Shown here piece by piece: positions 6,167 to 9,671 of a stretch of 33,145 nt of DNA. The notes beneath the pieces are model-generated. The model saw nothing but the letters and a program-made list of their open reading frames with translations. It made no database searches and was not told the origin of the DNA. Position numbers and translations under genes: made by a program. Source of the DNA: a virus; IMG/VR virus record IMGVR_UViG_3300034102_002582, positions 1-33,145 of that record, one strand, 5' to 3'. Numbering within the stretch: position 1 is the stretch's first letter; each line of letters begins with the position of its first letter.

Positions 6167-6307
6167 TTATCTACCTTGGGCTTTATAAGTCTTCTTGTAG
6201 TTCTTAGACGTTTTACACTTAGATATCTTTGTCTTCGCGTGTACGCCTGGGCGAGAGACTTTTACTTTAGCCTTTCTACCAATCGATGTTGAGTTAGCTT
6301 TAGCCAT
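6167..6307 (-). CDS. Small, highly basic conserved phage protein (46 aa)
   Basis: 46 residues, starting [18 protein letters not shown] and ending KNYKKTYKAQGR. About a third of the residues are Lys or Arg. The pattern (basic repeat, GVHAKTK, SKNYKK.Y..QGR at the C-terminus) is one I associate with a small basic protein found in crAss-like and other Bacteroidota phages, usually in the tail or packaging region. The ATG shares a base with the TAA stop of the M15 peptidase (TAATG), so it is coupled to the lysis genes although it leads into the tail module. The basic, unstructured composition suggests nucleic-acid binding, for example DNA condensation or packaging. It lacks a membrane segment, so a holin role is unlikely. 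Confidence 0.75.
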   Translation of the reverse strand: MAKANSTSIGRKAKVKVSRPGVHAKTKISKCKTSKNYKKTYKAQGR

Positions 6308-6774
6308 TATTCTTTTATTTCAAAGTGCATCCAATCATAGTCTTTTTCTACTCCTAAAGAAATAAATCCATGTTTGTAGAAAATATCAATCATTGATTTG
6401 TATTCAGGTCTAGCAAAACGTGCAGTACGTTTTGTTTCTTTTAGAGTATTTCTAGCAGGATCAAGATCTATTGCAATACCCCATGCATGCTTGCTCCAGG
6501 AAGTTCCTCCACGCATTTTGCGGTAGTTAAAACATCCTCCATATAGATCTATTCCTAATGCTTTTATTTGTGCAGAGCCATAGTGAGACAAAATATCATT
6601 AAATACAGCAAGAAGATTATCTGCTATATCTTTATGACATCTTACTCTACTTGTTGTAGTATCAGTATCCCATGCTATGCGCAATGGATAAGGACATATA
6701 ATTGTGGTTAAATAACCTGCTCCTGTTTCGTTAGGCTTGCCGTATTTAGCTATTGCCTGCGCTGTCGTCATCAT
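6307..6774 (-). CDS. M15-family peptidoglycan peptidase (endolysin)
   Basis: 155 residues with the zinc-peptidase M15 signature. [12 protein letters not shown] supplies two ligands (His96 and Asp103, spacing H-x6-D) and DWMHFE near the C-terminus supplies the third ligand (His150), followed by acidic Glu152. The family cleaves peptidoglycan stem peptides (L-Ala-D-Glu or D-Ala-D-Ala type bonds). There is no signal peptide, so it needs a holin to cross the inner membrane. The gene start lies 29 bp inside the upstream holin gene, the classic coupling of holin and endolysin. A second, different M15 enzyme lies at 7557-8018. The precise bond cleaved cannot be told from sequence. A structural tail-associated hydrolase is possible but less likely given the holin overlap. 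Confidence 0.88.
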
Positions 6775-7297
6775 TTTTTTTCTCGTCTTGATTTATTTTT
6801 AAAATACTACTAAGCTGAGAAATAAGAGGTAAAAAATTTCCCCAACCCAATCTCACAAAGTTCTCTAAATTAGAGATAAAAAGCTGTAGTATAATAAAGT
6901 TGTAAAATAAATAGTGAAGCCAATCGTAGATATTAAATTGAAATCCTAGAAAACCTTTGTTGGGAATATATTTTGCTGCAAGGTTAGAACAAATAATAAA
7001 CACCATGTAGATAAAAAGTTTTAACCAACCTTTTTGGAATTTTTCAGAAGAGAATCCTTTACCTTCTTTAATCGATGCTCTTATGCCTGTAAAAAGTTCT
7101 AGACCAAATAAAATAATAATTAAAATTCCTACAGGAATAGTAATGCCCATAATAGCTTCAAAGTAGTAAGCGGTAGAAGCTGCTACAGAACTGATTCCTA
7201 AAGCTATAGGCAAACTGTTAGGATGAAAGGTACTATCAATTAAATGACTTCCGTTGTTGTATCCACTTACTTTTGCTATACTTTCTAAAACTTTCAT
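6746..7297 (-). CDS. Phage holin, Phage_holin_4-like
   Basis: 183 residues with three or four hydrophobic segments: about 30-50 ([20 protein letters not shown]), 52-68 ([17 protein letters not shown]), about 90-107 ([17 protein letters not shown]) and about 124-142 ([18 protein letters not shown]). The ELFTGI.AS..EG motif after the second segment is typical of the Phage_holin_4 (toxin secretion/holin) family, where a D/E-x-x-TG motif precedes a basic loop. The C-terminus is charged and acidic ([11 protein letters not shown]), as is common for cytoplasmic holin tails. It overlaps the downstream M15 endolysin by 29 bp. The expected role is inner-membrane pore formation that releases the endolysin. 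The family is well supported. Confidence 0.85.
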
Positions 7298-7327: not shown

Positions 7328-7552
7328 CTATTTTTCTAAATCTTCTTTATCTTCTACTGTTAATTGAGACAGCGCTGCCGCTACTCCTCCTGCGGTTACT
7401 AAGTATCCTCCTAATGTTACTAGAGTAACGGGCAAGGTTATAGGCGCAGCTATAAGCACGCCTCCTACTGCTCCTGCTACCAAACCCACCTTTTGTATCT
7501 TTTTCCAAAATGTTGGAGTTTTAGAACTCCATCTGTCTTTAAGTGTTTTCAT
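7328..7552 (-). CDS. Small Gly/Ala-rich membrane protein, candidate second holin
   Basis: 74 residues. A basic N-terminus (MKTLKDRWSSKTPTFWKKIQK) is followed by a Gly/Ala/Leu/Val/Thr-rich hydrophobic stretch of about 40 residues (about 23-64, starting GLVAGAVGGVLIAAP), interrupted by Pro residues and enough for one long or two short membrane passes. An acidic tail (VEDKEDLEK) ends it. Small size, a basic head, a glycine-rich membrane part and a place between an M15 peptidase and a holin fit a small holin, pinholin or antiholin. No family is recognised with certainty. Its first 19 nt are identical to the start of the gene at 9435-9671, but the rest differs. Confidence 0.7.
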   Translation of the reverse strand: MKTLKDRWSSKTPTFWKKIQKVGLVAGAVGGVLIAAPITLPVTLVTLGGYLVTAGGVAAALSQLTVEDKEDLEK

Positions 7553-7556
7553 TTTT

Positions 7557-8018
7557 TTACTTATACGGTAAATAAGAAGTTCCCTTAGCTGACTTAACTG
7601 CTTTTAGAATTTGTTTACGTTGTTTGCCTGTAGACTCATAAGATACATGAACCCAGTCAGGATTAGTATCAGTTCCAAACTCCCAAATCATTTGGTCAAA
7701 ATTCAAATTATCTTTGATATAGTTAAAGATTTGAGCATTGGTTACTGATGTACCATCCATATCAATATCAATCGCTTCACCAGAACAATGCTGTGAGGAC
7801 AAACTTCCCCCGACAGCAGTATTGAGAGCTTTGCTTCTGTAGCCAGATGAGATATGAATTGGAACTCCAAAGTGTTCTCTAATTGGTTGGAATACATTCT
7901 CAGCCAATAATTTAAAGTTCTCAATATGCTCTGGTGTAGGCATATTACTAATTCCTTTTCTTTTAGCAGTTTCTGATCTCATTACTTCTGCTAATGCTAA
8001 ATTTTTACTTAGTTGCAT
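7557..8018 (-). CDS. Peptidase M15A-like peptidoglycan hydrolase (second M15 enzyme)
   Basis: 153 residues. The M15A pattern is complete: ISSGYRSKALNTAVGG (about 57-71), SSQHCSGEAIDID with ligands His77 and Asp84, and DWVHVSY with ligand His124. Many Bacteroidota phages carry this family as an endolysin or virion-associated hydrolase. There is no signal peptide. The leader contains ACAAAGTAAA just before the ATG, also seen before the capsid gene and the 434-residue virion gene, which hints at high expression. The gene sits between two small membrane proteins (89 and 74 residues). Having two M15 enzymes of different subfamilies within 1.3 kb is unusual. They could cleave different bonds, or one could act during entry; the sequence does not decide. 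Confidence 0.88.
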   Translation of the reverse strand: MQLSKNLALAEVMRSETAKRKGISNMPTPEHIENFKLLAENVFQPIREHFGVPIHISSGYRSKALNTAVGGSLSSQHCSGEAIDIDMDGTSVTNAQIFNYIKDNLNFDQMIWEFGTDTNPDWVHVSYESTGKQRKQILKAVKSAKGTSYLPYK

Positions 8019-8036: not shown

Positions 8037-8306
8037 TTAGTCAATTACTTCTTCTGAAGCTTCTTCTTTATTCTCTTTTTTGCTTGACATGATTCTACCA
8101 ACAGTTGTAATTCCAAATGCTCCAAGAGTAATAATCATAAATCCATCAAAGATAAACTCTTTTATGACAAGTTCTTTACCCCAAATACCTGTAACTACAT
8201 CAACTATTAAAATAAACACCATAGCAAAGAATGCTACTACTCCTACAAAAGTTTGTTCATTTATCTCATTAGCATCTGATACTAATTCTTTAAAAATTTT
8301 TTTCAT
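8037..8306 (-). CDS. Two-TM small membrane protein, candidate holin
   Basis: 89 residues. Two hydrophobic helices are visible: about 19-41 (TFVGVVAFFAMVFILIVDVVTGI) and about 51-74 (EFIFDGFMIITLGAFGITTVGRIM). They are joined by a short charged turn and followed by a Lys/Glu-rich tail (SSKKENKEEASEEVID). This size and topology (both ends cytoplasmic) fit class II holins. The D-x-x-TG motif at the end of helix 1 (DVVTG) is like that of other Bacteroidota phage holins. It begins three bases after the stop of the tandem-PAS membrane protein, so the two are surely co-translated. Its second helix resembles the last helix of the PAS protein (F.....L..AF.I.G.IM then a charged tail). Holin is an inference from topology and place. 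Confidence 0.72.
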   Translation of the reverse strand: MKKIFKELVSDANEINEQTFVGVVAFFAMVFILIVDVVTGIWGKELVIKEFIFDGFMIITLGAFGITTVGRIMSSKKENKEEASEEVID

Positions 8307-8309
8307 AAT

Positions 8310-9425
8310 TTATTTTTTTTCTTTACTGCCTTCTTGAGTAGCATATTTGATACCCATGATTGTACCAACTATTGAGAAGGCATTTGTTAATAATACACTA
8401 AACATATTACTCCAAGTTGAACCAATAATTTGTGTGTCTTGATTGGTTATAATAGCCATCCAATATAATACTGTAGTTACAACTCCTACTCCAACTATAA
8501 CAGCCAATGCAACTTTAACAATAATTTTAATCAGCTCACTTTGACTTTTCTTCATCATGACATCTAAGTCATTTAGTGCTGCATCCTTTTCTATCTCAAT
8601 TGCATTTTTAAGCTTTTGAGAATTATCAAGTTCTATTTGCAAATTCTTTGAAAGATCTTCTATTTTCTTCTCATTATTTACAGCAGCAGTAACATCAGTT
8701 GCAATCTTAACTACATCTGTAATATTACCTTTACTGTCAAACACAGGATTGTAAGAGGCTTGTAAGTAGACAGTAGAACCATCTACCTTTCTTCTTTCAA
8801 ATATTCCATCAAAGTACTTACCTTTTTTTAAGCTTTCCCAAAACTTAACATATTCATCAGATTTAGAGTACTCATAACTTATAAAAACACTGTGATGTTT
8901 ACCAATGACTTTAGCTTTTTCATTGGCTTTGTAGCCCATTGTTTCTAAGAAGATGGAATTTACATCTGTTATAAACCCATCAATGTTGAAACTAATCAGA
9001 GCAGTACTTCTGTTGATTGCATCTATTTGTTTTTTGCTATTGACAATTAAACTAACATCAGTAGCAATCTTCATTACTTTGGTAATCTTACTATCCTCAT
9101 TCAAAATTGGATTATAAGTTGCCTGTAAGTTAATGAGAGTACCATCTTTTCTTCTTCTCTCAAACTCACCAGTATAGTGTTTACCACTTCTTAATATATC
9201 CCAAAACTTTTCATATTCAAGTGATCTTGCATAATCATCACATACAAAAATGCTATGGTGTTTGCCAATAATATCATTATGGTTTCCTTTACCATAACCC
9301 ATTGCCTCCAAAAAAATGTCATTAACACCTGTGATAATACCACCAAGGTCAAAGTAGATAATAGCGTTACTTCTATTAATTGCTTCTAATCTACTTAGTA
9401 ACTCTTCTTTTGGTAGATTTTTCAT
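8310..9425 (-). CDS. Tandem-PAS sensor with C-terminal two-helix membrane hairpin
   Basis: 371 residues. Two PAS domains follow one another (about 15-125 and 135-247), each with the order AINRS, IGKHHS.F near the middle, KFW..L..GK, a basic strand ending ERR..DG, LQA.YNP and KIATDV. They resemble the PAS domains of methyl-accepting chemotaxis proteins. Next comes a coiled coil (about 250-297), a first membrane helix (about 300-326, IIVKVALAVIVGVGVVTTVL), a short loop with Asp/Gln and a second helix (about 338-362, SNMFSVLLTNAFSIVGTIMG), then a charged end. No kinase, methyl-accepting, GGDEF or HTH output domain is present. Topology predicts the PAS part and both ends in the cytoplasm. It is the first membrane protein gene of the lysis region, 3 nt before a two-TM holin candidate. 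The ligand or cofactor is unknown. A signal-gated holin or antiholin is my inference. Confidence 0.85.
   Translation of the reverse strand: MKNLPKEELLSRLEAINRSNAIIYFDLGGIITGVNDIFLEAMGYGKGNHNDIIGKHHSIFVCDDYARSLEYEKFWDILRSGKHYTGEFERRRKDGTLINLQATYNPILNEDSKITKVMKIATDVSLIVNSKKQIDAINRSTALISFNIDGFITDVNSIFLETMGYKANEKAKVIGKHHSVFISYEYSKSDEYVKFWESLKKGKYFDGIFERRKVDGSTVYLQASYNPVFDSKGNITDVVKIATDVTAAVNNEKKIEDLSKNLQIELDNSQKLKNAIEIEKDAALNDLDVMMKKSQSELIKIIVKVALAVIVGVGVVTTVLYWMAIITNQDTQIIGSTWSNMFSVLLTNAFSIVGTIMGIKYATQEGSKEKK
8685..9383 (-). repeat. Tandem duplication of a PAS-coding unit
   Basis: Two units of about 110 residues (9051-9383 and 8685-9023) share many residues in the same order: AINRS, GK-HHS, KFW, ERR..DG, LQA.YNP, KIATDV. 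This points to a duplication within the gene. Confidence 0.85.
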
Positions 9426-9434
9426 TACAAGTAA

Positions 9435-9671
9435 TTACTTGTTTAATTTTTTCACTAAAACTTTAGATAACAACTTACCTGCTATTTTTAGCAAAGGATT
9501 TTTAGCATCAACTGTTACACTAGTGCCTTCTTCAGTTTTAACTACATTAACATCTAGTTTTTCACTGTCAAGTTTAAATTCTTTTTTTTCACCGTCAATA
9601 TTGACTTCTACATCTACCTTTGGGGTATCAACTACAACATTAACTTTTTTATTGTCTTTAAGTGTTTTCAT
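9435..9671 (-). CDS. Small protein with cationic amphipathic C-terminal helix
   Basis: 78 residues, no recognised family. The first 55 residues alternate Val/Ile with Asp/Lys/Glu (VNVVVDTPKVDVEVNIDG and KLDVNVVKTEEGTSVTVD), which predicts an exposed beta-sheet. The last 20 residues (59-78, starting PLLKIAGKLLSK) contain seven Lys or Arg-like charges on one face and Leu/Ile/Val on the other, like a membrane-active amphipathic helix. There is no signal peptide. It ends 9 bp before the PAS membrane protein, so it is probably co-transcribed with the lysis genes. Its first 19 nt equal those of the 74-residue gene at 7328-7552 (both start MKTLKD). A membrane-perturbing or regulatory role in lysis is possible but not shown. 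Confidence 0.65.
   Translation of the reverse strand: MKTLKDNKKVNVVVDTPKVDVEVNIDGEKKEFKLDSEKLDVNVVKTEEGTSVTVDAKNPLLKIAGKLLSKVLVKKLNK

What the first reader, a model, noticed from the sequence alone, without database searches (positions are those of the whole stretch)
8310..9425. Tandem-PAS sensor fused to a holin-like membrane hairpin in a phage lysis region
Two chemoreceptor-type PAS domains, a coiled coil and two closely spaced membrane helices make up the whole protein. It has no kinase, cyclase, HTH or methyl-accepting output, and it sits 3 nt before a two-TM holin candidate and just upstream of an M15 peptidase. PAS domains sense redox state, oxygen, light or small ligands through a bound cofactor or metabolite. 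The simplest reading is a lysis-timing switch: the cytoplasmic PAS dimer senses the host's state and sets whether the membrane hairpin forms, or blocks, a holin pore. I do not know of a described PAS-gated holin. The domain layout is seen in sequence; the function is inference.
Basis: partly seen in the sequence, partly recalled or inferred. Interest (0 to 1): 0.88.

Follow-up and report, generated by a model that had tools for sequence, protein, structure and literature searches.

The report
Phage sensor wired to lysis genes
Many uncultured phages carry, beside the genes that burst the host cell, a membrane hairpin protein whose input is a redox-type sensor (or, in relatives, a whole two-component signalling system), which suggests that these phages sense the state of the host cell before deciding when to lyse it.

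Summary
ORF 8310-9425(-), 371 aa, has two AerC/NifL-type PAS domains, then one helix (246-326) running through a coiled coil into a first membrane helix, a 5-residue turn, and a second membrane helix. It has no known output domain. Relatives occur in at least 551 IMG/VR contigs, including crAss-like and T4-like phages, but none was found in 84,980 bacterial genomes or in named phages. In whole contigs, 30 of 33 M15/GH19/holin Pfam hits lie within 1.2 kb of the gene. The second membrane helix is invariant (213/213 loci) while silent sites vary. Unexpectedly, the same hairpin also occurs without PAS in a second large set of viral contigs. There it follows a response regulator (72/74, usually overlapping it) and a histidine kinase (72/74), and an endolysin is usually near. 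Three contigs fuse it to a GAF domain resembling the GAF of those kinases. PAS-type loci never have the kinase or regulator (0/214). So the hairpin is most likely the output of a phage sensory pathway built into lysis cassettes. Whether the hairpin is itself a pore, a depolarising trigger or an anti-holin is not shown. FAD/redox sensing is inferred from an invariant Trp and His in each PAS.

The parts
8310..9425 (-). PAS-PAS-coiled coil-membrane hairpin protein, 371 aa
   Evidence: at least 551 viral relatives of its C-terminal part
9045..9377 (-). PAS domain 1 (residues 17-127); W75 in helix F-alpha and H57 invariant in 81 homologues
   Evidence: FAD determinants as described in PMC10468136
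8682..9032 (-). PAS domain 2 (residues 132-248), a duplicate of PAS 1; W196 and H178 invariant
8448..8690 (-). Single predicted helix, residues 246-326: coiled coil running into membrane helix 1 (about 299-326)
   Evidence: AlphaFold2, hydropathy
8334..8432 (-). Membrane helix 2 and its start (residues 332-364, QIIGSTWSNMFSVLLTNAFSIVGTIMGIKYATQ), invariant core with a small/polar face
   Evidence: invariant in 213/213 loci; 4-fold sites differ by 46%; polar stripe
8037..8306 (-). 89-aa two-helix membrane protein (family c1), holin candidate; starts 3 nt after the PAS gene
   Evidence: c1 within 3 kb in 64/79 loci; homologue gp192 in the lysis region of Flavobacterium phage immuto
7557..8018 (-). 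M15 peptidase endolysin
   Evidence: Peptidase_M15_3 7.4e-21; PHROG endolysin 9.4e-39
7328..7552 (-). 74-aa membrane protein (family c12) of the lysis cassette
   Evidence: homologues in 19 loci
6746..7297 (-). Phage_holin_4_1 family holin
   Evidence: Pfam 2.3e-9; 8/8 such hits in 40 contigs lie within 1.2 kb of the hairpin gene
6307..6774 (-). Second M15-type peptidase (Peptidase_M15_4), a second endolysin candidate
   Evidence: Pfam 7.7e-10; PHROG endolysin 2.4e-56
9435..9671 (-). 78-aa protein (family c14) directly upstream in many PAS-type crAss-like loci; function unknown

Best explanation
The protein is a phage-encoded, membrane-anchored sensor that sets lysis timing. (1) Shown from sequence: a tandem PAS unit of the AerC/NifL/MmoS flavin type is joined by one continuous helix to a two-helix membrane hairpin, within the holin/endolysin cassette. 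(2) Shown by comparison: the hairpin is a portable output module. In other phages it receives input from an adjacent, usually overlapping, response regulator with a histidine kinase, or from a fused GAF domain, and these usually lie beside an endolysin too. (3) Inferred: the PAS pair binds FAD and reads the redox or energy state of the cytoplasm. A change in it is passed through the coiled coil to the hairpin, which assembles through its invariant small/polar second helix and lets ions pass. The loss of membrane potential then triggers whatever holin the phage has. This would explain why helix 2 is the same in phages with unrelated holins and endolysins. I give about 0.75 to signal-controlled lysis, 0.65 to a flavin/redox input, and 0.4 to the depolarising-trigger form of the output.
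For: Location: an endolysin within 3 kb in 72/79 distinct loci. In 39 loci with at least 9 kb on both sides, 41 of 42 endolysin genes lie within 2 kb. A whole-contig Pfam check puts M15 10/11, GH19 12/14 and Phage_holin_4_1 8/8 within about 1.2 kb of the gene. Different phages: crAss-like Ring_2 in 9/30 contigs and T4 Gp23 in 5/30, with at least 7 switches of phage type on the PAS tree. Output module: sensor-less relatives follow a response regulator in 72/74 and a kinase in 72/74, against 0/214 PAS loci. All 104 kinases keep the H-box, and the receiver Asp region is conserved. Pfam confirms HATPase_c, PAS/GAF, Response_reg, GH19 and Phage_holin_10 in such operons. GAF-fused forms have no kinase or regulator in the stretches read, and their GAF is 57-64% identical to the GAF of the kinases. 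Selection: helix 2 is invariant in 213/213 loci while 4-fold sites differ by 46%. Sensor: the best PDB relatives are MmoS, Aer and NifL; W and H are conserved in both PAS, the reported FAD determinants for the AerC cluster. Cultured relative: Flavobacterium phage immuto has c1-endolysin-holin without the PAS gene.
Against: No experiment and no cultured carrier. 7 of 79 PAS loci (mostly large T4-like contigs) have no endolysin nearby by my models, and 16 of 58 loci of the kinase type have none within 3 kb. No holin family matches the hairpin. Other holin candidates are usually present, so the hairpin need not be the pore. The polar stripe in helix 2 was chosen after looking at the sequence, and one of its five Ser/Thr positions (S343) is Gly in the kinase-type relatives. 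The structure model has modest confidence in the membrane part and says nothing on oligomers. FAD binding is inferred.
Confidence: 0.6

Rival explanations
1. Sensor-controlled anti-holin: the hairpin pairs with the membrane helices of the resident holin (c1 or Phage_holin_4_1) and holds it back until the sensor switches, as in lysis inhibition.
For: A 2-TM c1 gene lies within 3 kb in 64/79 loci and often overlaps by 4 nt. Holin families (4_1, 10) occur beside the hairpin. Anti-holins classically sit next to holins.
Against: c1 diverges widely (37-96% identity) and other holin families occur instead, while helix 2 never changes; a partner-specific inhibitor should track its holin. Some loci lack a recognisable holin partner nearby (14/79).
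Confidence: 0.25
2. PAS-gated holin proper: the hairpin alone makes the lesion through which the endolysin leaves.
For: Class II holin topology (two helices, N and C termini probably inside); 14/79 loci have no other small 2-TM candidate within 3 kb; tight linkage to endolysins.
Against: Other holins are usually present; no similarity to any holin family; a large cytoplasmic domain on a holin is unusual.
Confidence: 0.2
3. Not a lysis factor: a membrane signalling or superinfection-exclusion protein that travels with the lysis cassette, or one that interferes with host signalling through its PAS domains.
For: Seven PAS loci and about a quarter of the kinase-type loci are not beside a recognisable endolysin. 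The protein is an accessory that a cultured relative lacks.
Against: Association with lysis genes across phage types with unrelated backbones and four endolysin families; the same hairpin beside endolysins with three different inputs.
Confidence: 0.2
4. Same architecture but another cue: the PAS pair senses oxygen through haem, or a small ligand, not redox through FAD.
For: Foldseek also matches DosP and FixL haem PAS domains. PAS cofactors can differ between close relatives.
Against: Best sequence matches are FAD PAS domains; the F-alpha Trp and the His reported for the AerC cluster are invariant. NCBIfam gives NifL among its matches.
Confidence: 0.2

Closest known systems
AerC / BdlA / McpS-type tandem-PAS cytoplasmic chemoreceptors (FAD PAS, cluster 9 of PMC10468136 for AerC)
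   Same: Two N-terminal PAS domains with the F-alpha Trp and His; 41-43% identity over the tandem PAS to bacterial MCPs.
   Different: The MA signalling domain is replaced by a coiled coil and a membrane hairpin; found in viruses and in lysis cassettes.
GAF-PAS hybrid histidine kinases of Bacteroidota (Flavobacterium, Winogradskyella, Chitinophagaceae)
   Same: Among the nearest bacterial PAS domains, 49-51% identity.
   Different: They phosphorelay; the phage protein has no kinase part.
Class II holins / pinholins and anti-holins (own knowledge)
   Same: Two membrane helices, lysis-cassette position, short loop.
   Different: No sequence relation; large cytoplasmic sensor or phosphorelay input; an ultra-conserved second helix shared by unrelated phages.
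Vibriophage VP882 VqmA (PMC8284805, found; details partly from own knowledge)
   Same: A phage-encoded PAS-family receptor that affects lysis.
   Different: It is a transcription factor acting on the lysogeny-lysis choice; here the sensor is joined to a membrane hairpin beside the endolysin.
Flavobacterium phage immuto lysis region (NC_055915)
   Same: c1 homologue, GH19 endolysin and holin in the same order.
   Different: No PAS-hairpin; it has a separate 67-aa hairpin protein gp189, with only a marginal similarity.

Membership tests
FAD-binding PAS of the AerC type | Trp in helix F-alpha | tested here: met
   W75 and W196 invariant in 81 homologues and placed in helices 69-79 and 190-200 of the model; criterion from PMC10468136
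FAD-binding PAS of the AerC type | Conserved His (clusters 9 and 14) | tested here: met
   H57 and H178 invariant; aligned with the His of the Aer PAS
FAD-binding PAS of the AerC type | Flavin bound in the purified domain | not testable with these tools
   needs a spectrum
Methyl-accepting chemotaxis protein | MA signalling domain | tested here: not met
   no MCPsignal hit
Holin (class II) | Two membrane helices in a hairpin | tested here: met
Holin (class II) | Small protein made of little but the helices, similar to a holin family | tested here: not met
   371 aa; no holin family in Pfam, PHROGs, NCBIfam
Holin (class II) | Gene beside the endolysin | tested here: met
Holin (class II) | Makes membrane lesions that release endolysin | not testable with these tools
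   needs expression
Anti-holin | Binds and delays the cognate holin | not testable with these tools
   only adjacency known
Two-component output protein (window protein) | Coupled to a response regulator and a kinase | tested here: not met
   0/214 PAS-type loci have either
Two-component output protein (sensor-less relatives, not the window protein) | Response regulator directly upstream and kinase nearby | tested here: met
   72/74 and 72/74; Pfam HATPase_c and Response_reg
Host (bacterial) gene | Hairpin present in bacterial genomes | tested here: not met
   0 relatives in 84,980 genomes by pattern scan; 0 of 395 genomes of the Flavobacterium phylum by profile (no positive control in that search)

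The most novel reading that the evidence does not exclude
A previously undescribed class of phage lysis control: an ultra-conserved viral membrane hairpin serves as a common output that can be plugged to redox PAS domains, a GAF domain, or a complete phage-encoded two-component system, and decides lysis timing from the host's internal state, independently of which holin and endolysin the phage uses.
Probability: 0.5. Interest if true: 0.93.

Novelty: categorically new. Interest (0 to 1): 0.85.

Why it matters
How lytic phages choose the moment of lysis is thought to depend mostly on holin sequence and accumulation. A phage-encoded sensory pathway wired into the lysis cassette would mean that some lytic phages read the host's redox or energy state and act on it. 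Hundreds of viral contigs from environmental metagenomes carry it, across unrelated phage groups, so it may bear on when infected cells burst in nature. The exchangeable inputs make the idea directly testable: delete the sensor or exchange inputs in a laboratory phage-host pair and measure lysis time. It would also give an output to phage-encoded two-component systems.

Tried and rejected
Named-phage hits to the PAS part (MT836939, OR848218/OR848229) are bacterial chemoreceptor genes in unannotated records, that is, contamination. PHROG 1544 matched the C-terminal part weakly, but the profile also rings in 11 of 14 control genomes, so it was dropped. A link to immuto gp189 is only marginal (E 0.04), and its phage matches did not help. 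PADLOC found no defence-system relation beyond a weak coiled-coil hit. Paper searches found no PAS-holin, no sensor-domain holin and no phage two-component lysis system in the open library; subscription papers are not covered. A very recent transfer as the whole cause of the high identity was rejected because silent sites are well diverged. The count of phage-type switches on the tree uses partly heuristic labels, so the profile-confirmed contigs are the firm evidence of distinct phages.

Full report
OBSERVATION. The ORF at 8310-9425(-) is real: ATG start, 371 aa, in a 33-kb virus record whose tail-ring gene marks it as crAss-like (PF25702). Pfam finds two PAS domains and no known output domain. 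The two PAS domains are duplicates of each other. AlphaFold2 predicts PAS (about 17-127), PAS (132-248), a single helix 246-326, a short turn and a helix 332-364; hydropathy agrees with two membrane helices. The next gene starts 3 nt later (8037-8306, two hydrophobic helices), followed by an M15 endolysin (7557-8018), a small membrane protein, a Phage_holin_4_1 protein and a second M15 peptidase.

A VIRAL FAMILY UNDER STRONG SELECTION. A scan of IMG/VR found 180 relatives of the full protein, the best 80 at 82-96% identity, and 551 relatives of its C-terminal part. No relative of the C-terminal part turned up in 84,980 bacterial and archaeal genomes, nor in 395 genomes of the Flavobacterium phylum by profile (no positive control), nor in 50,697 named phage records. 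Most other genes of the window are absent from the related loci. The carriers include contigs with the crAss Ring_2 protein (9 of 30) and with the T4 capsid protein Gp23 (5 of 30), never both, and the two kinds are interleaved on the PAS tree (labels partly heuristic). Four-fold sites differ by 37% (median pair) while the protein differs by 12%; in the second membrane helix the protein differs by 0% while silent sites differ by 46%. The core TQIIGSTWSNMFSVLLTNAFSIVGTIMGIKYAT is identical in 213 of 213 loci with an intact end. The first scan's patterns did not include that helix, so its invariance there is not a selection effect. Every fourth residue of helix 2 from S339 to T355 is Ser or Thr (shuffle P 1.3e-4, post hoc). 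In the kinase-type relatives S343 becomes Gly, but a small/polar face remains.

IT BELONGS TO LYSIS MODULES. Neighbour families are GH24, M15, GH19 and PG-binding endolysins, Phage_holin_4_1 proteins and a 2-TM family, c1; one neighbour (c30) has the lipobox plus C-terminal helix of a unimolecular spanin by eye. In 79 distinct loci with 3 kb on both sides, 72 have an endolysin and 64 have c1 within 3 kb. In 39 loci with 9 kb on both sides, 41 of 42 endolysin genes lie within 2 kb. These counts use models seeded from the same loci, so I repeated the test with Pfam models over 40 whole contigs: M15 10 of 11, GH19 12 of 14 and Phage_holin_4_1 8 of 8 lie within about 1.2 kb of the hairpin gene. 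Exceptions are mostly large T4-like contigs. The cultured Flavobacterium phage immuto has c1, a GH19 endolysin and a holin in the same order but no PAS gene, so the PAS gene is an accessory of such modules.

THE HAIRPIN IS A PORTABLE OUTPUT. About 70 loci carry a single PAS instead of two. A DNA pattern scan for helix 2 then revealed another set of proteins (182-229 aa) with the same hairpin but no PAS. Their genes follow a 145-aa receiver protein, usually overlapping it by 4 or 1 nt, and a histidine kinase with PAS and/or GAF domains; an endolysin often follows directly. Pfam confirms HATPase_c, PAS, GAF, Response_reg, GH19 and, in one operon, Phage_holin_10. Of 74 distinct loci with 3 kb upstream, 72 have the receiver within 0.6 kb upstream and 72 the kinase within 3 kb; none of the 214 PAS-type loci has either. 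All 104 kinases keep the H-box, and the receiver's acidic pair and FVDLN motif are conserved. An endolysin lies within 3 kb in 42 of 58 such loci. Some of these contigs exceed 290 kb. AlphaFold2 of this form gives a small N-terminal domain, a 149-residue helix and the second helix. Three contigs fuse a GAF domain to the hairpin, with c1 and/or a GH19 endolysin beside it and no kinase or receiver in the stretches read. That GAF is 57-64% identical to the GAF of the kinases (those ORFs confirmed as kinases). So one output is fed by fused PAS, fused GAF or a two-component relay. Domain fusion replacing a signalling chain is good evidence that the chain ends on the hairpin.

THE CUE. The nearest solved relatives are the FAD redox sensors MmoS, Aer and NifL. 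[quoted passage not shown] Both are invariant in both PAS domains (W75/H57, W196/H178), and the Trp lies in the right helix of the model. AerC is a soluble tandem-PAS FAD receptor (PMC13401364), and BdlA and McpS PAS domains are predicted FAD binders (PMC8694187). The nearest bacterial PAS domains are in Bacteroidota kinases and proteobacterial chemoreceptors at about 50% identity. Flavin binding itself is untested.

MECHANISM. Steps shown: sensor, continuous helix, hairpin, lysis cassette, exchangeable inputs. Steps inferred: redox change moves the helix, and the hairpin acts on the membrane. Among actions, I prefer a gated, depolarising trigger. Holins respond to loss of membrane potential (established knowledge of the lambda system), so such a trigger works with any holin, which fits an invariant helix 2 beside holins of unrelated families. 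An anti-holin or a holin proper remains possible. A non-lysis role remains possible, above all for the loci away from endolysins.

NOVELTY. No family in Pfam, PHROGs, NCBIfam or PADLOC describes the hairpin, and the open literature searched holds no sensor-coupled holin or phage two-component lysis system. Parts are known; the wiring is, as far as I can tell, not. I rate it categorically new as an arrangement, with the function still to be shown.

Noticed in passing
L320, L344, L350, L400-L476, L490 and others (viral contigs, some above 290 kb): Phage-encoded histidine kinase - response regulator - hairpin protein - GH19 endolysin operons; the two-component counterpart of the window protein.
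   Followed up: yes
L553/L555, L556, L557: GAF domain fused to the same hairpin, beside c1 and/or a GH19 endolysin; the GAF resembles that of the kinases in the two-component operons.
   Followed up: partly
L132, L174, L184 and about 65 other loci: Natural single-PAS versions of the protein; PAS copy number changes several times on the tree.
   Followed up: partly
window 6307-6774 and 7557-8018: Two different M15-type peptidases in one lysis cassette; the first overlaps the Phage_holin_4_1 gene (6746-7297) by 29 nt.
   Followed up: no
L217:6304-6504 (immuto gp189): 67-aa 2-TM protein after the holin of a cultured flavophage; weakly similar to the hairpin of the PAS protein (E 0.04).
   Followed up: partly
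MT836939.1, OR848218.1, OR848229.1 (named phage records): Unannotated 'phage' records that hold bacterial chemoreceptor genes, probably bacterial contamination.
   Followed up: yes
L121:370-1475: One locus has the PAS protein split in two frames; frameshift or assembly error.
   Followed up: no
L328, L394: Kinase-regulator-hairpin operon followed by a DnaK gene instead of an endolysin.
   Followed up: no
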